Positions 39,771 to 49,549 of a stretch of DNA of 64,000 bases are shown here, piece by piece. Source of the stretch: Mycobacterium sp. UM_WGJ (lineage in GTDB: Bacteria > Actinomycetota > Actinomycetes > Mycobacteriales > Mycobacteriaceae); the NCBI RefSeq assembly GCF_000455125.1, contig NZ_AUWR01000001.1:1-64000 (forward strand), in the 5' to 3' direction. Numbering within the stretch: position 1 is the first letter of the stretch; every line of letters begins with the position of its first letter. The position numbers and the translations under genes are program-made. A model generated the notes under the pieces. That model was not told where the DNA came from. It searched no databases and saw only the letters and a program-made list of their open reading frames with translations.

Positions 39771-40277
39771 ATGAACGCCGTCGCAGGGACGGTAAGAAAG
39801 GTGGCCGGAGCGGCGAGCCGCGCGGTCACCATGACCACTGAGGCAGCCGGGGCGATCGGCGGGGCCGCAGTCAACGGGGTAATCGGCGGTGTCACGGGGG
39901 CGGCCGGCGGCGTGCAGCGCGGGCTGCGCACCGGCAGCCACTCGACTCCCGCGGCCGCGCTGACCTTGGGCGCCCTCGGCGTGACCGGGCTGGTCGAGTG
40001 GCCGGTGTTGGTCGCGGTGGGCGGCACCGCACTGGTGCTCAAACAACTGACCAACCGGTCGGATCACAACAAGGCGTCGGCCCAGGCCTCGACTGCGTCG
40101 GTACGGCCGCTCAGGGCGGCGCCGCCGGCGAAGGCGACAAAGCCGACGAAGGCGACGAAGCCGGTGAAATCGGCGAACTCGTCGACGTCAGCGCGTCGCG
40201 CCCCACAGCCGAAGAAGACAGCGGCACGGCAGCCACGCAGCGGCGCCAGCAGCAACCGCACTCGCACCCGCCACTAG
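39771..40277 (+). CDS. Small membrane-associated protein with Lys/Pro-rich tail (Rv0426c-like)
   Basis: 168 residues. N-terminal region of Ala/Gly-rich amphipathic helix (AGAASRAVTMTTEAAGAIGG), a hydrophobic segment at about 62-95, then a basic tail with near-tandem repeats AKATKPTKATKPVK and ending ARQPRSGASSNRTRTRH, reminiscent of histone-like tails. Its position just before ctpH matches Rv0426c (147 residues as recalled). Function unknown; the tail suggests nucleic-acid or acidic-polymer contact at the membrane. ATG 39771 follows GGGCAGGGAATTCCC. Confidence 0.82.
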   Translation: MNAVAGTVRKVAGAASRAVTMTTEAAGAIGGAAVNGVIGGVTGAAGGVQRGLRTGSHSTPAAALTLGALGVTGLVEWPVLVAVGGTALVLKQLTNRSDHNKASAQASTASVRPLRAAPPAKATKPTKATKPVKSANSSTSARRAPQPKKTAARQPRSGASSNRTRTRH

Positions 40278-40288
40278 TCGGGTACCGA

Positions 40289-43200
40289 GTGAATTCAGAC
40301 TCTTCCCTGCGTGCCGTCCGCCGCTTCTGGCCGCTGCGCGCAGCGAATTTCGGTGTCCAACTGACCTCAGCGCTGATCGAAGCCTCGGTCCAGACCGCTG
40401 CCGGAGTTGCCGCGGCTGTCCTGCCGAACGGTGACGGGGGCCCGGTGCTGTCCCGGCGCTGTTTCCGCGGCGAAGGGCGGGCCTGGGTCGAGATCCGTGG
40501 CCTCGACGGCCCCGCCGGTGACGAGCTGGCGACCGCCGTCGTGGAAGCCGCGCGCGCACTGCCCGGCGTGATCTCGGTCCGCTTGAACCACCCGTTGTCG
40601 CGTCTGGTGGTCGGGCTCGACTCAACCGCCGATGACGTCGTCTCGGTGCGTGAACTGTGCCACGTGGTGGCCGACGTCGAAAGCCGGCACAGCTTCGACT
40701 CTCCTGCGTCGAGCCTCGCTAACCGCACGGCGGAATCCCGCGGTCAAGCCCCGGTGAGTCTGCCCGGCGATGGAATGACCGAGACGCTGCGCGCCTTGAC
40801 CGTCGGCGCCAACATCGCCGGCTTGGGCGCCGCGACGGTGGGCCGGTTGCTGCGCCTGCCGGGCCTGCCGCTCGGTTTGGAGGCCGGCGTCGTCCTCGTC
40901 GACTACCAGCCTCGGGTGCGCCGACTGCTGGAGGACCGCCTCGGCAAGCAGGCAACCGATGCGCTGTTGGCACTGGCCAGCGCCGGCGTGCACACCCTCA
41001 ACACCGCGCCGACCACGCTGGCGGTGGACTTGTCGGTGGAGGCGATGCGCGCCGGGGAGGAACGCGCCGCGGCCCGCGCCTGGCGCCGCCACGAGCCGGA
41101 GCTCGCCCACCACGCCGATCATCCGCCGGTGACCGTTCCGCAGCGGCCGGCGCCGCGGCCGCCGGGTCCGGTCGAGCGCCACCTGACCCGCAGCGCCTGG
41201 GCACAACTCCTGGGCGCTGGGGTGATCGGCGCCGCGACCCGCAATCCCGACCTGGCCGGCACGGCCGCCGCGGTGACCGCGCCGAAGGCCACCCGCACCG
41301 CACGCGAGTCCTTCGCCGCCACCCTGGGCCGGGGCCTGGCCGATCACCACGGCACGGTGGTGCTGCGGCCGGGCAGCCTGCGTGAACTCGACCGCGTCGA
41401 CACCGTGGTCATCGATCCTCGGGTGCTATGCGGCGAGACGTTGCGGGTGATGCAGGTGCGCGGCGCCGACGACGACGACTTGCGCGCCGCATGGGCGCAG
41501 GCCCAGGCACGCCTGACCGACGCCGACCTCAAACCGGGTTGGCACCGCATCGGACCACGCCCCGGGGTGCAGGCGTCATTCCAGCCCGCGCTATTGCCGC
41601 TGGCCGCCGCGGTGGTGACCGAGGCGCGCCGCGCCGACGTCGAGGTGTTCTCGGTGGAGGCCGACGCGCTCGGGGAGCTGCGGCCGGTCTTCGACGAGAT
41701 CCGGCCCCTGGACGGCGCCTCGGTAGACCAGGCGCTGGCCGCCGCGGTAACCGCCTACCAGGCCGACGGCCATGACGTCGCGGTGCTGTCCGCGGTAGCC
41801 GTGGAGGCGCTGGCTGCGGCCGACGTGGCGCTGGGCGTGCTGCCGGGACAAGGTGTCCCGCCGTGGTGCGCCGATGTGTTGCTGACCGACCTGGCTGCGG
41901 CCTGGCGGGTGTTGCACGCGCTGCCCGCGGCCCGCTCCGCCAGTCACCGTGGCGTGGAGATCTCCACCGGTGCCACGGCGTTGGGCTCGCTGCTACTGCT
42001 GCCCGGGGTGCGCGGTAGCGGGCCCGGGCCGGTGACCACGGGTGCGGCGGCCGGCGCGCTCTCGGGGTACTGGCTGGCGCGCCGTGCCGTGGATGCCGCG
42101 GTGCCGCGGCCGGCGGCGGTGCACGAGTGGCACGCGATGTCGGTCGACCAGGTCCGGGCGGTGTTGCCGCCGCCGGAGCTGGATGAGCCCGGCACCACCC
42201 ACCATGCGCCGGCCGCCGCCGCTGCGCTGGCGGCGGTGGATCTGGCCCGCCGCGGGGCGCAGGCAACCGCGCCGCCGCGGCTGCTGCGGCAGTTTGCCCA
42301 GGCCGTGCGCAGTGAACTGTCCGACCCGATCACGCCCGTGCTGGCGCTGGGGGCCGCGGCCAGCGCGGTGCTGGGTTCACCCGTCGACGCGGTCCTGGTC
42401 GGTTCGGTGTTGGGCGGCAACGCGATGCTCGCGGCCGCGCAGCGCCTGGTCGCGGAGCGCCGGCTCAACGTGCTGCTGAACGAGCAGGTTCCGCCGGCGC
42501 GCAGGGTCCTGCCCGACGGAAGCCACGTTGAGATTCCGGCCGAGGAACTGCGGCCCGGCGATGTGATCGAGGTGCACTCCCATGAGGTGGTGCCCGCCGA
42601 CGGCCGGTTGATCGACGCGACCGACCTGGAGGTCGACGAGTCGTCGCTGACCGGTGAGTCGCTCACGGTGGTTAAGCAGGTCGAGGCCACGCCGGGTGCC
42701 GATCTGGCCGAGCGGGAATGCATGGTCTACGCCGGTACCACCGTCGTCACCGGAACCGCGGTGGCTTTGGTGACCGCGGTGGGCGGCGACACCCACGGGA
42801 GGCGGGCCGCCGAACTGGTCGCCGGCGATCAGTCCGCGATCGGGCTGCAGCATCAGCTGAGCCTGCTGACCAGCAAGGCCTGGCGGATCAGCCTGGCCGG
42901 CGGCGCGCTGGTGACCGGGCTGGGGATGGCCCGCCGGATCGGGTTGCGGCAGGCGGTGGCCAGCGGCATCGCGGTCAGCGTCGCAGCTATTCCCGAAGGG
43001 CTTCCGCTGGTGGCCACCTTGTCACAGCAGGCGTCGGCCCGACGACTGACCAAGGCCGGTGTGCTGGTGCGGGTGCCGCGTTCGGTGGAGGCGCTCGGCC
43101 GTGTCGACGTGGTCTGCTTCGACAAGACCGGCACGCTGAGCCGCAACCGGCTGCGGGTGTCGCAGGTGCACCCTGCCACGGGTTTCACCGAGCACGACGT

Positions 43201-44815
43201 GCTGCGCTTTGCTGCCGCCGCGGCGCCGGTCCCCAACGGCACCCGGCAGGTGCACGCCACCGACACCGCCATCGTGGAGGGCGCGGCGCTGGCCGGAGTC
43301 GCCGGCGCACCGACAGGGCCGGTCGCGCACCTGCCGTTCCGCTCCGGGCGTCAGTTCTCGGCCTCGATACGGGGAACCGAGTTGACCCTCAAGGGTGCCC
43401 CAGAAGTGGTGCTGGCGTGCGCCGGGGCGGGCCCGGCGATCAAGAAGTCGGTGGCCACCTTGGCCGCCGAGGGGCTGCGCGTGATTGCGGTTGCCCGCCG
43501 CCAATTGACCCCGGCAGAACGCGCCGCCCTGAGCATCGATCCCGAACCCGAGGAGATCGCAGAGTACTGCCGCGACGGTCTGACCTTCGTGGGCCTGCTC
43601 GGTCTGTCGGACACGCCGCGCGACGAGGCCACCGAACTGCTCGCCGACCTCAAGCGCCGGCGAATCCCGGTGCGGCTCATCACCGGCGACCACCCGCTGA
43701 CCGCCACCGCGATCGCCCGGGAGCTGGGACTGGACGTCGACGACGATCAGGTGATCACAGGCGCGCAGTGGGATGCGTTGTCCCGCAAGGGCCAAGAGGT
43801 TGCGGTCGCCGAGCGCGTGGTGTTCGCCCGGATGTCTCCGGAGAACAAGGTGCAGATCGTCCAGACGCTGGAGCGCACCGGCAAGGTGTCGGCGATGGTC
43901 GGCGACGGAGCCAACGACGCCGCGGCGATCCGGGCCGCCACCGTGGGGATCGCGGTGGTCGCGCACGGCAGCGAAGCGGCCAGCACCGCCGCAGACGTAG
44001 TGCTGCTCGACGAGCGGATCGACACCCTTCTGGATGCGTTGGACGAAGGCCGCGAGCTGTGGCAGCGGGTACAGGCCGCGGTGGCGGTGCTGCTGGGCGG
44101 CAATGCCGGTGAGGTGGCCTTCGCGATCATCGGGAGCGCGCTGACCGGTCGCTCGCCGCTGAACGCACGCCAGCTGTTGCTGGTCAACATGCTGACCGAC
44201 GCGCTGCCGGCCACCGCGCTGGCGGTCAGTTCGCTCAATGAGCAGGCCGCCGCCGGCGGGCACGGTCCCGACGAACGCGCGCTGTGGCGCACGGTGGGCG
44301 TGCGCGGCGTGACGACGGCGTCGGCCGCGGTGACCGCCTGGGGTCTGGCTTCGGTCACCGGGCGCCCGCAGCGGGCCTCCACGGTGGCGTTGGTGTCGCT
44401 GGTCGCCACGCAACTGGGGCAGACTCTGCTGGATTCGCGTGATCCGCTGGTGGTGGCGACCGCTGTCGGCTCGCTGGGCATGATGGGGACGCTGATCACC
44501 ATCCCCGGTATCAGCCAGCTGCTGGGCTGCACTCCGATCGGGCCTCTGGGCTGGGCCCAGGCTCTGGGTACGGCGACGGTGGCCACCGTCGGCGCAGCCG
44601 TGGTGCCCAAACTGCTGTCGGGGGCGCGGGACGACATGGCCAAGCCGAAGGAGTTCATCGTGCCCGGGCCGCGTCAACCGGACCGCCCGCAGGAATCATC
44701 CGACGGTCACCCGGCGCCGCGGCTGCGGCTTGTGCACAATGGGGACACTGGCTCCCGCCGCGGAACGGTCGCGGCTCGATCATCCGGCGACCCGTCGCCA
44801 CCAGGAGGTTCATGA
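40289..44815 (+). CDS. ctpH: P-type cation-transporting ATPase CtpH
   Basis: 1,508 residues; CtpH (Rv0425c) is about 1,539. The first ~640 residues are an actinobacterial N-terminal extension. The P-type core follows: actuator TGES (SSLTGES near 788), the membrane PEGLP, phosphorylation site DKTGT at Asp945 (CFDKTGTLSRN), KGAPEVVL nucleotide-binding region and hinge GDGANDAAA near 1205, with C-terminal membrane helices. Proposed to move divalent cations, Ca2+ being likely, but specificity is uncertain. GTG 40289 is 11 bases after the preceding gene. A family-A repeat is embedded in frame at residues 134-146. Confidence 0.93.
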   Translation: MNSDSSLRAVRRFWPLRAANFGVQLTSALIEASVQTAAGVAAAVLPNGDGGPVLSRRCFRGEGRAWVEIRGLDGPAGDELATAVVEAARALPGVISVRLNHPLSRLVVGLDSTADDVVSVRELCHVVADVESRHSFDSPASSLANRTAESRGQAPVSLPGDGMTETLRALTVGANIAGLGAATVGRLLRLPGLPLGLEAGVVLVDYQPRVRRLLEDRLGKQATDALLALASAGVHTLNTAPTTLAVDLSVEAMRAGEERAAARAWRRHEPELAHHADHPPVTVPQRPAPRPPGPVERHLTRSAWAQLLGAGVIGAATRNPDLAGTAAAVTAPKATRTARESFAATLGRGLADHHGTVVLRPGSLRELDRVDTVVIDPRVLCGETLRVMQVRGADDDDLRAAWAQAQARLTDADLKPGWHRIGPRPGVQASFQPALLPLAAAVVTEARRADVEVFSVEADALGELRPVFDEIRPLDGASVDQALAAAVTAYQADGHDVAVLSAVAVEALAAADVALGVLPGQGVPPWCADVLLTDLAAAWRVLHALPAARSASHRGVEISTGATALGSLLLLPGVRGSGPGPVTTGAAAGALSGYWLARRAVDAAVPRPAAVHEWHAMSVDQVRAVLPPPELDEPGTTHHAPAAAAALAAVDLARRGAQATAPPRLLRQFAQAVRSELSDPITPVLALGAAASAVLGSPVDAVLVGSVLGGNAMLAAAQRLVAERRLNVLLNEQVPPARRVLPDGSHVEIPAEELRPGDVIEVHSHEVVPADGRLIDATDLEVDESSLTGESLTVVKQVEATPGADLAERECMVYAGTTVVTGTAVALVTAVGGDTHGRRAAELVAGDQSAIGLQHQLSLLTSKAWRISLAGGALVTGLGMARRIGLRQAVASGIAVSVAAIPEGLPLVATLSQQASARRLTKAGVLVRVPRSVEALGRVDVVCFDKTGTLSRNRLRVSQVHPATGFTEHDVLRFAAAAAPVPNGTRQVHATDTAIVEGAALAGVAGAPTGPVAHLPFRSGRQFSASIRGTELTLKGAPEVVLACAGAGPAIKKSVATLAAEGLRVIAVARRQLTPAERAALSIDPEPEEIAEYCRDGLTFVGLLGLSDTPRDEATELLADLKRRRIPVRLITGDHPLTATAIARELGLDVDDDQVITGAQWDALSRKGQEVAVAERVVFARMSPENKVQIVQTLERTGKVSAMVGDGANDAAAIRAATVGIAVVAHGSEAASTAADVVLLDERIDTLLDALDEGRELWQRVQAAVAVLLGGNAGEVAFAIIGSALTGRSPLNARQLLLVNMLTDALPATALAVSSLNEQAAAGGHGPDERALWRTVGVRGVTTASAAVTAWGLASVTGRPQRASTVALVSLVATQLGQTLLDSRDPLVVATAVGSLGMMGTLITIPGISQLLGCTPIGPLGWAQALGTATVATVGAAVVPKLLSGARDDMAKPKEFIVPGPRQPDRPQESSDGHPAPRLRLVHNGDTGSRRGTVAARSSGDPSPPGGS
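40690..40726 (-). repeat. Dispersed family-A repeat embedded in frame within ctpH
   Basis: CAGCTTCGACTCTCCTGCGT followed by CGAGCCTCGCTAACCGC matches the 37191-37236 element with about three substitutions and one missing base. It encodes SFDSPASSLANR (residues 135-146 of CtpH), with no break in the reading frame. Confidence 0.78.
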
Positions 44816-45087
44816 TGGCGGACAAGCCGCGGCGCAGCGCTTCCCAGCGCGAGGCAGTGGCCCACATTCGCGAGGCAGAGGGGTTCGCCGTTGAATTGCC
44901 GCTGTTCGGCAAGGTGACGGTGCCGCGGCCTGAGCAATTGGCCTACTACGGCGGGCTGGCGTTGCTGGCGGCTTTCGAGATCATCGACTGGCCGGTGGCC
45001 GTGGCGGTGGCTGCCGGCCACATTCTGGCCAGCAACCACCGCAGTGAGGTGCTCGAACAGCTCGGCGAGGCCCTAGAAGACGTCTAG
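44812..45087 (+). CDS. Small conserved protein (Rv0424c-like)
   Basis: 91 residues, the same length as Rv0424c. One hydrophobic region (about 40-72: EQLAYYGGLALLAAFEIIDW then VAVAVAAGHILAS) with an N-terminal basic and acidic segment. The ATG overlaps the ctpH stop by four bases (ATGA), so it is translated with ctpH. It may be an accessory membrane subunit of the pump; that is inference from coupling and conservation only. Confidence 0.85.
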   Translation: MMADKPRRSASQREAVAHIREAEGFAVELPLFGKVTVPRPEQLAYYGGLALLAAFEIIDWPVAVAVAAGHILASNHRSEVLEQLGEALEDV

Positions 45088-45104
45088 CCGAGGTTCAGCC
45101 TCGG
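45088..45104. terminator. Hairpin terminator between convergent genes
   Basis: CCGAGG, loop TTCAG, CCTCGG, starting one base after the stop of 44812-45087. G-T and A-T pairs can extend the stem to about eight. It also lies just past the 3' end of the small minus-strand gene (stop 45111), so it can serve both strands. Confidence 0.6.
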
Positions 45105-45110
45105 TTGACC

Positions 45111-45305
45111 TCAGTTGTTGACGGTCAGCACTCCGACGCGCCACAGGAGTGCGTACATCTGGTGCAGCGGGCCACTGAGCAGCCGAGTGGTCATGTCGAC
45201 CACCGGGTCTGAGGTAGGCGCGGCAGGACGGCGGTCCAGCTTCTTCGGCGCGCTGGTGGCGCGCGGGGCCGGAGCCGTGATGTCGGTGTAGGCGATTGCA
45301 ACCAT
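45111..45305 (-). CDS. Small protein downstream of M-box riboswitch
   Basis: 64 residues: an N-terminal segment (MVAIAYTDITAPAPRATSAP) then KKLDRRPAAPTSDPVVDMTT and a hydrophobic C-terminus PLHQMYALLWRVGVLTV. No domain recognised. An excellent Shine-Dalgarno (AGGAGG, 5 bases before ATG) marks the start. The leader carries an M-box aptamer (45541-45700), so expression should rise when Mg2+ is scarce. In M. tuberculosis M-boxes precede Rv1535, another small protein of unknown function, and PE20; whether this is an Rv1535 homologue I cannot confirm. Confidence 0.75.
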   Translation of the reverse strand: MVAIAYTDITAPAPRATSAPKKLDRRPAAPTSDPVVDMTTRLLSGPLHQMYALLWRVGVLTVNN

Positions 45306-45363
45306 GATGGCCTCCTAGTCGCGTAACGGTGCTACGCGCTCAGCTGAAGGCCGGAGTCGTGGC

Positions 45364-45444
45364 TCAGCGGGAGGCGGTATGCGACCGTTCGGATGGGGAC
45401 GGAACTGATGTCAGATATCGGCTCGGACTATCACCGGAACTCAT
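45364..45444 (-). CDS. Candidate 26-codon leader ORF between the M-box and the small gene
   Basis: ATG 45444 is preceded by GAGAGGAGGTGAGGGACGA, a strong purine-rich Shine-Dalgarno. The peptide starts MSSGDSPSRYLTSVPSP and contains three Pro and many Ser, ending at TGA 45364. It lies between the aptamer and the 64-residue gene, where a leader peptide could couple translation to the riboswitch as in Salmonella mgtA/mgtC leaders. Coding is not proven. Confidence 0.45.
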   Translation of the reverse strand: MSSGDSPSRYLTSVPSPSERSHTASR

Positions 45445-45540
45445 TCGTCCCTCACCTCCTCTCGGTCGCGGGCGCGCCGTGGTGCGCCGGTTTCACCGCA
45501 TGCTCAGGAGGGCAGCTCCGACGACTGTCGGAAGACCGCA

Positions 45541-45700
45541 CCCCTCTCGTCAGAGTTTTGACACTGCACGGCGTGTCCCAATCCGGGAAGCCACTTGGGC
45601 TCAACCCTTAAGCCGGGAGGAGCTGTCCTGACCCGGGGCGTCTTTCGACGTTCGGGGTCAGTGGCCTATGTCCGTGCAGACGCCTCACCTAACGAGGTGC
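45541..45700 (-). ncRNA. M-box (ykoK) Mg2+ riboswitch aptamer
   Basis: On the minus strand the leader reads CTCGTTAGGTGAGG, then GCACGGACATAGGCCACTGA, CGTCGAAAGACG, GGGTCAGGACAG, AAGGGTTGAGCCCAAGTGGC and finally GCCGTGCAGTGTCAAAACTC with TGACGAGAGGGG. These blocks fall in the order of the Bacillus mgtE M-box (GTTAGGTGAGG ... GTGCTAAAGCTCTACGATTGAAGGGG), including P1 closing CCTCGT with ACGAGAGG. A 6-bp hairpin TCCGAC-AGTC-GTCGGA follows at 45517-45532 and could be part of the expression platform. The rest of 45306-45891 holds only this unit's promoter, leader ORF and spacer. Confidence 0.88.
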
Positions 45701-45711
45701 TTGCACGGTCC

Positions 45712-45740
45712 ATAGTGCACCACCGACGGGGTGCGGTCAA
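45712..45740 (-). promoter_or_regulatory. Putative promoter of the M-box transcript
   Basis: On the minus strand TTGACC (-35, 45735-45740) and CACTAT (-10, 45712-45717) are separated by exactly 17 bases, placing a start near 45705, just before the aptamer's P1 at 45700. The -10 hexamer is a weak match, but the spacing and placement fit. Confidence 0.55.
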
Positions 45741-45891
45741 CTCCACCCCATTCGGGCGTGTCGATGGCCTCTGACGTGCAGCGATGGCGTCCAACCCCGT
45801 GCGCCCAAGGTGTCACACCCGTCACTTTGGTACCAGAACGAGACCCTAACGGCCCAGTTCCGCGACCGACGTTTCGCGACGGTTTGGGGGC

Positions 45892-47658
45892 TTAGTCCTT
45901 CAGATTCAGCGGCTCGACGGCATAGCGCCCCGGCGTCCGCCACGACGCGAGCGCACCGAGCAGCATCATGACCGCCGCGGCGGCAAAGACCACTGCGAGA
46001 CCCGTATGGAACGGCCCGGAGATCAGCTGCGGGAAGAAGCTGTGGCCGGTCAACGTCTCGGCATCAACGCCGGGTGCGGCCAGCGCGCCCGACGGCGCCA
46101 AGAGTTCGGCAATCGGGTTGTAGCCCAGAAACGCCGCGAAGAGGCTGCCCACCGGCGGGGTGTTGGCTATCTGATCGGCGACACCGGCCGAGACGCCCTC
46201 CTGCCGCAACCCAGCAGCCAGCGCCGCCGGCAACGTCTCGGCCAGCCCGATCACCATCAGCGAGAAGAAGATTCCGATCGACAACGAGGTGCCGGCGTTG
46301 AAGAACGTGGCCCGCACACCGGAGGCCGCCCCTCGCTGGTCGGCCGGGACACTGGACATGACCACGGCACTGTTGGGCGCGGTGAAGATTCCGCCACCCA
46401 GTCCGTTGAGGAAGACCAGCGCCGCGAACACCCGGTAGTCGAAGTTCACCGGCAGCAACACCAGACCCACGAACGTCGCCGCCATCAGCACCATGCCGCC
46501 GACCGTGAACGGACGGGCACCGCGGCGGTCCGACAACGATCCGGCCACCGGACCGGCCAACAGGAACCCGGCCGTCATGGGCAGCAGATAGATACCGGCC
46601 CACAACGGCGTCGATTCGTAGCTATAGCCGTGCAGCGGTAGCCAGATGCCCTGCAGCCAGATGATCAGCATGAACTGCATGCCGCCGCGCCCGATCGCCG
46701 ACAGCAAGCCTGCCGCGTTGGCCATACCGAACGCCGGAATCGCGAAGAGCCGAACGTCCAGCAGCGGAGCGGCAACCCGTAGCTCGATGAAACAGAACAG
46801 CACCAACAGCGCCACTCCGAGCCCGAGCGCACCCAGCACAACCGGGTTGGCCCAGCTGGTGGGCGAAGACCCATGCGGCTGAATGCTGTAGGTGATGGCG
46901 GTCAGCACCACGGTCAGGCCCAACCCAAGCGTCGCGGTGCCCGCCCAGTCCAGCTTCGCCGGCGCCCGCTCCCCGAGTTCGTGCAGTGAACGTACCGACC
47001 AGATGGTGCCCAGCACTCCGATCGGGACCCCGACCCAGAACACCGCCCGCCAGTCCCATTCCGACAGCACGCCGCCGATCAACAGGCCAACAAAGGACCC
47101 GGCGACTGCGGCCACCTGGTTGACACCCAGCGCCATGCCACGCTGATTGGCCGGGAACGCGTCGGTGAGGATCGCTGAGGACGACGCCATCAGCATCGCC
47201 CCGCCGACGCCCTGCACCACCCGCCACGCGATCAGCCACTGGGCACCGCGGCCCATGTCGAACGGGTCGATCGACAGCGCGATCGCCGCGACGGTGAACA
47301 CCACGAAGCCCAAGTTGTAGATGCGCACCCGGCCGAACATGTCGCCGAGCCGGCCGAAGAACACCACCAGCACAGCCGACACCAGCAGATAGCCCATCAA
47401 CATCCACAGCAGGTAACTGACGTTCGCCGGCTCCAGCGGATTGAGGCCGATACCCCGAAAGATCGCCGGCATCGAGATCAACACGATCGAGCCGTTGATG
47501 GTGGCGAGCAGAACACCCAGTGTGGTGTTGGACAGCGCGACCCATTTGTAGCGCGGGTGGCCACGGTCGTAGCGCAGCTGGCGGCGGGCGGTGGCAGGTC
47601 CCTCCGCGGCGCCCGGGTCCGGGACACCGGTGTTCACCTGCTCAATCTGCGCCGTCAT
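45892..47658 (-). CDS. DHA2-family drug:H+ antiporter (MFS, 14 membrane spans)
   Basis: 588 residues with about 14 hydrophobic spans. MFS signatures are motif [15 protein letters not shown], motif C-type [20 protein letters not shown], and a second-half [14 protein letters not shown]. The EmrB/QacA-type family exports drugs and other amphiphiles in exchange for protons. ATG 47658 is preceded by GGGAGAG. The promoter region holds the palindrome TTAGCTAA at 47695-47702, a possible MarR or TetR site. Divergent from the riboswitch-controlled thiC. Confidence 0.92.
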
Positions 47659-47722
47659 AACTCTCCCAGCTACTTCCACCCCAAAGCGCATATGTTAGCT
47701 AAGCAAATGATCGGTTGCCTAA

Positions 47723-49549
<1,827 letters not shown>

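What the first reader, a model, noticed from the sequence alone, without database searches (positions are those of the whole stretch)
45306..45740. M-box Mg2+ riboswitch with its own promoter controlling a small unknown protein
The longest apparent gene desert holds, on the minus strand, all conserved blocks of the ykoK/M-box aptamer in order, a promoter-like pair exactly 17 bases apart, and a 64-codon gene with a perfect AGGAGG. The target is neither a Mg2+ transporter nor PE20. This suggests an uncharacterised Mg2+-starvation small protein.
Basis: partly seen in the sequence, partly recalled or inferred. Interest (0 to 1): 0.72.

Follow-up and report, generated by a model that had tools for sequence, protein, structure and literature searches.

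The report
Magnesium riboswitch controlling mycobacterial Rv1535 protein

Summary
The M-box is real: RF00380, 154.9 bits (cut-off 44), window 45703-45535, minus strand. A promoter pair like the one described recurs in 57 of 57 compared leaders. The 64-codon target is not an unknown protein: it is Rv1535 (NCBIfam Mbox_reg_Rv1535, 80.2 bits, cut-off 62). So this is a new member of a known kind.

Beyond that: the Rv1535 domain also occurs without an M-box, divergent from an Rv0424-like gene at the end of a ctpH-like P-type ATPase. I saw this Rv0424 pairing in 27 of 27 sampled Mycobacterium loci, and within 220 nt in 22 of 24 genomes of five other genera. In the window's clade the M-box copy itself sits at that locus. 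This suggests that Rv1535 is a magnesium-controlled paralogue of an Rv0424/CtpH-linked small protein. Against it, the Rv0424 pair persists without a close ctpH, and the published switch was not reproduced by folding for this copy.

The parts
45712..45740 (-). promoter: TTGACC (45740-45735), 17 nt, CACTAT (45717-45712), TG directly before the -10
   Evidence: sequence; a pair of this kind with N17-18 in 57 of 57 M-box leaders
45535..45703 (-). M-box (ykoK leader) Mg2+ aptamer
   Evidence: RF00380, 154.9 bits, positions 1-169 of 169
45452..45541 (-). uORF1, GTG start in SD1 at the aptamer end, 29 codons; its last two codons are the AGGAGG of SD2, stop TGA directly after
   Evidence: read; same frame as ORF 45452-45604; counterpart of uORF1 of PMC12810186; conservation not tested here
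45506..45512 (-). CCCTCCT, candidate anti-Shine-Dalgarno (aSD) that can pair with the SD1 flank or with the uORF2 start region
   Evidence: folds; switching not supported for the window itself
45364..45444 (-). uORF2, 26 aa MSSGDSPSRYLTSVPSPSERSHTASR, SD2 AGGAGG 45460-45455; proline at position 7
   Evidence: counterpart in 57 of 57 leaders, proline 7 in 56; first 9 codons show coding conservation 0.061/0.060/0.209, codons 10-26 do not
45111..45305 (-). Rv1535 homologue, 64 aa, SD AGGAGG 45316-45311
   Evidence: NF040652 80.2 bits (cut-off 62) and NF040653 66.3 bits (cut-off 33)
44812..45087 (+). Rv0424c-like small protein gene (name recalled), overlaps the ATPase stop by 4 nt; convergent with Rv1535, 23 nt between the two ORFs
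   Evidence: neighbour of Rv1535_dom genes
39998..44815 (+). CtpH-like P-type ATPase (name recalled)
   Evidence: Pfam E1-E2_ATPase 141.3 bits, Cation_ATPase_C 55.6 bits

Best explanation
The locus is an rv1535-type M-box module. A promoter makes a leader that begins with a Mg2+ aptamer. When Mg2+ is ample the aptamer closes, its outer stem hides SD1, the pyrimidine-rich aSD is free to mask the uORF2 start, and transcription ends early, most likely through Rho because no intrinsic terminator-like site is present. When Mg2+ is scarce SD1 captures the aSD, uORF2 is translated, and RNA polymerase reads on into Rv1535. Shown here: aptamer, promoter pair, uORF2, identity of Rv1535, no terminator-like site. 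Inferred from the M. tuberculosis work: off-switch direction, Rho, translational control. For the protein I commit to this: Rv1535 is the Mg2+-starvation-induced paralogue of an older small protein that works with the Rv0424-type membrane protein of CtpH-like P-type ATPases, and it probably modulates that membrane complex from the cytoplasmic side. The stated confidence is for the module; for the protein part it is about 0.3.
For: Aptamer. Named family. uORF2 in 57 of 57 leaders. Promoter pair in 57 of 57. No terminator-like site in 45080-45900. SD1 release opens the uORF2 start region in 45 of 57 leaders. Published mechanism for the M. tuberculosis pe20 leader, proposed there for rv1535 too: PMC12810186. 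Protein link: M-box-free Rv1535_dom divergent from Rv0424 in 27 of 27 sampled loci, Rv0424 beside it in 5 of 5 more, and within 220 nt in 22 of 24 genomes of other genera; coding pattern 0.32/0.153/0.462; presence concordant with Rv0424 in 144 of 148 genomes; the window clade carries the M-box copy at this locus in 12 of 12 loci examined.
Against: For the window the computed opening on SD1 release is absent: start region 0.53 to 0.49, shuffled SD1 0.51, SD2 alone 0.50 to 0.36. Its nearest relatives L065 and L066 do not beat shuffled SD1 either, and 10 of 57 leaders go down. PMC12810186 reports that Rho depletion changed rv1535 termination only marginally. The protein link rests on gene position. 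The co-occurrence is not corrected for phylogeny and mostly reflects one inherited locus. In 12 of the 27 loci no ATPase lies in the fetched flanks, in one only a fragment, and in one it is about 4.5 kb away; of those 12 genomes only 2 have a long match at 53% identity or more, the range of adjacent ctpH genes. 54 of 56 named M-box copies have no Rv0424 in their flanks. Rv1535 has no transmembrane segment by hydropathy (best 19-residue mean 0.96).
Confidence: 0.85

Rival explanations
1. uORF2 is the only functionally regulated product and Rv1535 is a passenger read through at low level.
For: With the M. tuberculosis pe20 leader in M. smegmatis, uORF2-lacZ is more than 10-fold above pe20-lacZ (PMC12810186). 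uORF2 is in 57 of 57 leaders, and its first nine codons are strongly conserved.
Against: The Rv1535 domain is under clear protein-level selection (0.166/0.061/0.376) with its own Shine-Dalgarno, and the module M-box-uORF2-Rv1535 stays together at different places in the genome.
Confidence: 0.2
2. Rv1535 and its paralogues work with Rv0424 alone, or with CtpI-type ATPases, and CtpH is only a neighbour.
For: Rv0424 is beside the M-box-free copy in 27 of 27 sampled loci, an ATPase in the flanks in 14 plus one fragment. The pair persists in genomes with no close ctpH. The two start codons lie about 60 nt apart in most of the 27.
Against: Rv0424 itself follows CtpH-like ATPases in two paralogous places: 7 of the 12 genomes have a second Rv0424 just downstream of another CtpH-like ATPase. 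In other genera 23 of 24 fetched loci hold both an ATPase and an Rv0424 match.
Confidence: 0.3
3. The domain in the ctpH 3' end is not a gene but the mirror of a conserved ATPase tail.
For: Where ctpH is adjacent the copy usually overlaps the ATPase ORF antisense, and GC-rich antisense frames are often open.
Against: The second codon position is the most conserved and the third the most variable in the domain's own frame. A stop follows the domain at once in 17 of 18 loci of other genera shown. The domain persists where no ATPase is near. The same protein exists as stand-alone Rv1535.
Confidence: 0.05
4. The aptamer answers mainly to another divalent metal such as Mn2+.
For: PMC12810186 cites work suggesting that the rv1535 aptamer associates with other divalent cations, and it defines a Mn2+-type M-box class.
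Against: It also cites Mg2+-dependent control by the pe20 leader, and PMC7755994 reports Mg2+-dependent reporters for both M. tuberculosis leaders (passages).
Confidence: 0.1

Closest known systems
M. tuberculosis rv1535 M-box leader (Rfam RF00380; PMC3207917, passages; PMC12810186, parts 1-4 of 6)
   Same: aptamer, uORF1, uORF2 with proline 7, Rv1535 downstream, no intrinsic terminator
   Different: Rv1535 here is 64 aa (59 aa in L065/L066, 71-86 aa in the other 54 named M-box copies); it lies between an MFS gene/thiC and Rv0424-ctpH instead of before a T-box/ileS; computed SD switching not seen
M. tuberculosis pe20 M-box with Rv1805A
   Same: same leader logic
   Different: controls PE/PPE genes; the window genome has two such M-boxes elsewhere (L002 before a PE gene, L003 before a PPE gene)
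Bacillus subtilis ykoK (mgtE) M-box
   Same: aptamer
   Different: intrinsic terminator and transporter target there (PMC12810186); neither here
Small-protein partners of P-type ATPases (MgtS/MgtR, sarcolipin; recalled, not compared)
   Same: small protein genetically tied to a P-type ATPase and, for MgtS/MgtR, to Mg2+ starvation
   Different: no transmembrane segment in Rv1535; no interaction shown

Membership tests
M-box riboswitch (RF00380) | covariance model score over gathering, full length | tested here: met
   154.9 bits against 44, 1-169 of 169
M-box riboswitch (RF00380) | upstream of and on the same strand as the regulated gene | tested here: met
   229 nt from aptamer end to the Rv1535 ATG
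M-box riboswitch (RF00380) | binds Mg2+ and changes expression | not testable with these tools
   needs probing or a reporter
Rv1535 family (NF040652) | score over curated cut-off | tested here: met
   80.2 against 62 bits
rv1535-type M-box class of PMC12810186 | conserved uORF2 with proline 7 | tested here: met
   MSSGDSPSR... at 45444
rv1535-type M-box class of PMC12810186 | followed by T-box/ileS or transferases | tested here: not met
   the next genes are Rv0424-like and CtpH-like, on the other strand; no T-box over gathering in the window
Translational expression platform | SD1 release opens the uORF2 start region | tested here: inconclusive
   45 of 57 leaders up, 10 down; window 0.53 to 0.49
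Rho-dependent leader termination | no intrinsic terminator; Rho dependence | tested here: inconclusive
   no terminator-like site; Rho dependence needs an experiment
pe20-type or mgtE-type M-box | PE/PPE gene or metal transporter downstream | tested here: not met
   downstream gene is Rv1535
Transmembrane P-type ATPase regulator (MgtS/sarcolipin kind) | single transmembrane helix | tested here: not met
   maximum 19-residue hydropathy 0.96

The most novel reading that the evidence does not exclude
Rv1535 descends from a small-protein gene that lies divergent from Rv0424 and often antisense in the 3' end of ctpH, seen here in Mycobacterium and five other genera of its family. Duplication placed one copy under an M-box and uORF2, so that mycobacteria can adjust an Rv0424/CtpH-type ATPase complex when Mg2+ runs out. 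In the window's clade the M-box copy has taken over the ctpH locus itself, where no nested copy was seen.
Probability: 0.3. Interest if true: 0.7.

Novelty: new member of a known kind. Interest (0 to 1): 0.45.

Why it matters
The function of Rv1535, induced by Mg2+ starvation in M. tuberculosis (PMC7755994, passages), is unknown (PMC12810186). The family's conserved place beside Rv0424 and CtpH-like ATPases gives a first concrete, testable lead. It also suggests how a riboswitch can capture a duplicated small gene. I found no paper linking Rv1535 with Rv0424 or CtpH: no paper of the library holds two of the three names, other searches were made, and PMC12810186 mentions neither ctpH nor thiC. 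Papers outside that library were not searched.

Tried and rejected
Rejected: the target is a new protein (one search names it). Rejected: the weak domain copies are chance or antisense artefacts. Dropped: a T-box/ileS neighbour test. The ORF that I used as ileS was not ileS, so its 'ileS' column is void; Rfam found no T-box over gathering in 10 M-box loci (9 named ones and L204). No solved structure matched the family profile. Structure prediction was accepted but had not finished in any call that asked for it (82, 84, 86, 88, 89, 91-97, 99, 100, 103). The motif script found nothing because its pattern was wrong; one search repeats it with a corrected one. The motif script did not match the copies of other genera; their positions come from the HMM hits. 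One search uses 47 of 57 uORF2s (those of 26 codons). The 27 Mycobacterium loci are a sample of the weaker M-box-free hits listed, a list that the tool cut. I paired M-box and domain hits by eye (about 55) and base no count on it. PMC12357739 assigns thiamine genes to Rv0423c-Rv0425c in a way that disagrees with my recall; not used.

Full report
Observation. The minus strand at 45740-45111 holds a promoter, a complete M-box and a 64-codon ORF. The Rfam match is full length, 154.9 bits against a gathering score of 44. The pair TTGACC-N17-CACTAT escapes a strict consensus scan, but a TTGACC with a similar -10 at N17-18 is present at the same place in all 57 M-box leaders that I compared: the window and the 56 of 80 named loci whose Rv1535 relative has an M-box upstream.

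Identity of the target. The ORF scores 80.2 bits with the curated equivalog model NF040652 (Mbox_reg_Rv1535; cut-off 62) and 66.3 bits with NF040653 (Rv1535_dom; cut-off 33). It is Rv1535, not an unknown protein. Pfam gave no match. The family has a short N-terminal motif, a variable linker and a conserved C-terminal domain of about 31 residues. It has no transmembrane segment by hydropathy.

Between aptamer and Rv1535 lies uORF2 (45444-45364) with AGGAGG at 45460-45455. A counterpart 83-99 nt after the aptamer end is present in 57 of 57 leaders: 53 read MSSxxSPxR (three of them with a GTG start), three begin MRS and one has a two-codon insertion; proline 7 is present in 56. Its first nine codons vary mainly at the third position (0.061/0.060/0.209, n=47 of 57), while codons 10-26 do not show that pattern (0.228/0.281/0.186). 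uORF1 (45541-45452) ends with the AGGAGG of uORF2. This is the architecture described for the M. tuberculosis rv1535 and pe20 leaders in PMC12810186 (parts 1-4 of 6 read). There, for pe20, uORF2 is the main regulated ORF, control is translational and early termination is Rho-dependent; the same is proposed for rv1535, although Rho depletion affected rv1535 only marginally.

Mechanism test. I computed how open the uORF2 start region (SD2 to ATG) is with the outer aptamer stem closed and with SD1 free. Over 57 leaders the mean rises from 0.36 to 0.46 (0.43 with shuffled SD1), with 45 up and 10 down; real SD1 beats the shuffled mean in 42 of 57. On SD2 alone, 44 go up and 3 down. The leaders are related, so these are not 57 independent tests. 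For the window the start region goes from 0.53 to 0.49 (shuffled 0.51) and SD2 alone from 0.50 to 0.36; L065 and L066, its nearest named relatives, do not beat shuffled SD1. The published switch is therefore supported for the group and not for this copy. No terminator-like hairpin is present.

Other M-boxes of the genome. The genome has three. The other two precede a PE gene (L002) and a PPE gene (L003).

Where the protein family comes from. At E 0.001 or better Rv1535_dom is found in 94 of 148 Mycobacterium genomes (82 over the cut-off) and M-boxes in 76 of 148. Domain genes also exist without an M-box. I fetched 40 such loci; none has an M-box by my own model. Of these, 27 (L151-L177, a sample of the weaker hits) all lie divergent from a 91-residue Rv0424c-like gene, with 79-94 nt between domain and Rv0424 match. 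Six (L145-L150) lie convergent with a second CtpH-like ATPase, as does the paralogue in the window's genome (L005). Seven (L178-L184) have neither nearby; the copies of L179 and L183, and of five named loci, lie near a glmS-like gene (name by motif, recalled). Where ctpH is adjacent to Rv0424 the copy mostly overlaps its 3' end antisense. The frame is coding: divergence 0.32/0.153/0.462 at codon positions 1/2/3 (n=27). Five further Mycobacterium loci, from genomes without an M-box hit, agree. In a family-wide search, 35 of 201 genomes and 6 of 31 genera have the domain. All 24 genomes of the five other genera were then looked at: 22 have a divergent Rv0424 within 220 nt, in all five genera; L244 has it 1533 nt away, and L250 has none and only part of an ATPase at the edge.

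Co-occurrence. Across 148 genomes, 92 have both domain and Rv0424, 2 the domain only, 2 Rv0424 only, 52 neither. This is not corrected for descent, and often the two are one locus. Six genomes have an M-box but no domain, and 24 have the domain but no M-box, so the domain follows Rv0424 more closely than it follows the M-box.

The window's clade. An MFS gene is inserted in 9 of the 12. The other 54 of 56 named M-box copies have no Rv0424, ThiC or CtpH-like match in their fetched flanks of up to 7 kb.

Evidence against the link. Of the 27 loci, 12 have no ATPase in the flanks, one a fragment, one an ATPase about 4.5 kb away. Of those 12 genomes only G087 and G109 have a long match at 53% identity or more, the range (53-63%) of the ATPases found in the 27 loci, and in four (G026, G045, G108, G116) the best is 46-49% over part of the protein. 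So the pair with Rv0424 can outlive a close ctpH. For it: 7 of these 12 genomes carry a second Rv0424 just downstream of another CtpH-like ATPase, which ties Rv0424 to this kind of ATPase. PMC2396618 (passages) lists M. tuberculosis Rv0424c as a 10 kDa one-helix protein found in the membrane fraction when overexpressed. PMC4119724 (passages) lists CtpH with the human SERCA pump as its closest human counterpart. The names Rv0424c and CtpH for the window genes are recalled from gene order and were not tested against an M. tuberculosis record.

Verdict. The lead on the protein family is new as far as my searches show, and it is positional only.

Noticed in passing
window 47807-47911 (+): TPP riboswitch before thiC, 53.4 bits, just under the gathering score of 54.3; the long thiC ORF start at 47774 is therefore probably too far upstream.
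   Followed up: partly
window 45892-47691 (-): MFS efflux-type gene inserted between thiC and the M-box module in 9 of 12 clade loci; absent in L065/L204 and L066.
   Followed up: partly
L002 1501-1673 (-), L003 172-357 (+): The two M-boxes before PE/PPE genes of the same genome have TTG-started uORF2 counterparts, read by eye from the sequence printed; the L003 one lacks proline 7.
   Followed up: partly
window 45417-45367 (uORF2 codons 10-26) and relatives: Third codon positions are the least variable there (0.186), unlike codons 1-9; an overlapping element may be present.
   Followed up: no
L151-L177: In most of these loci the start codons of Rv0424 and the small gene lie about 60 nt apart, back to back, with a similar spacer: a possible shared divergent promoter.
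   Followed up: partly
G000:C22 (L005, L186): A second CtpH-like ATPase with a convergent Rv1535_dom gene; its match to the window ATPase contains one in-frame TGA.
   Followed up: no
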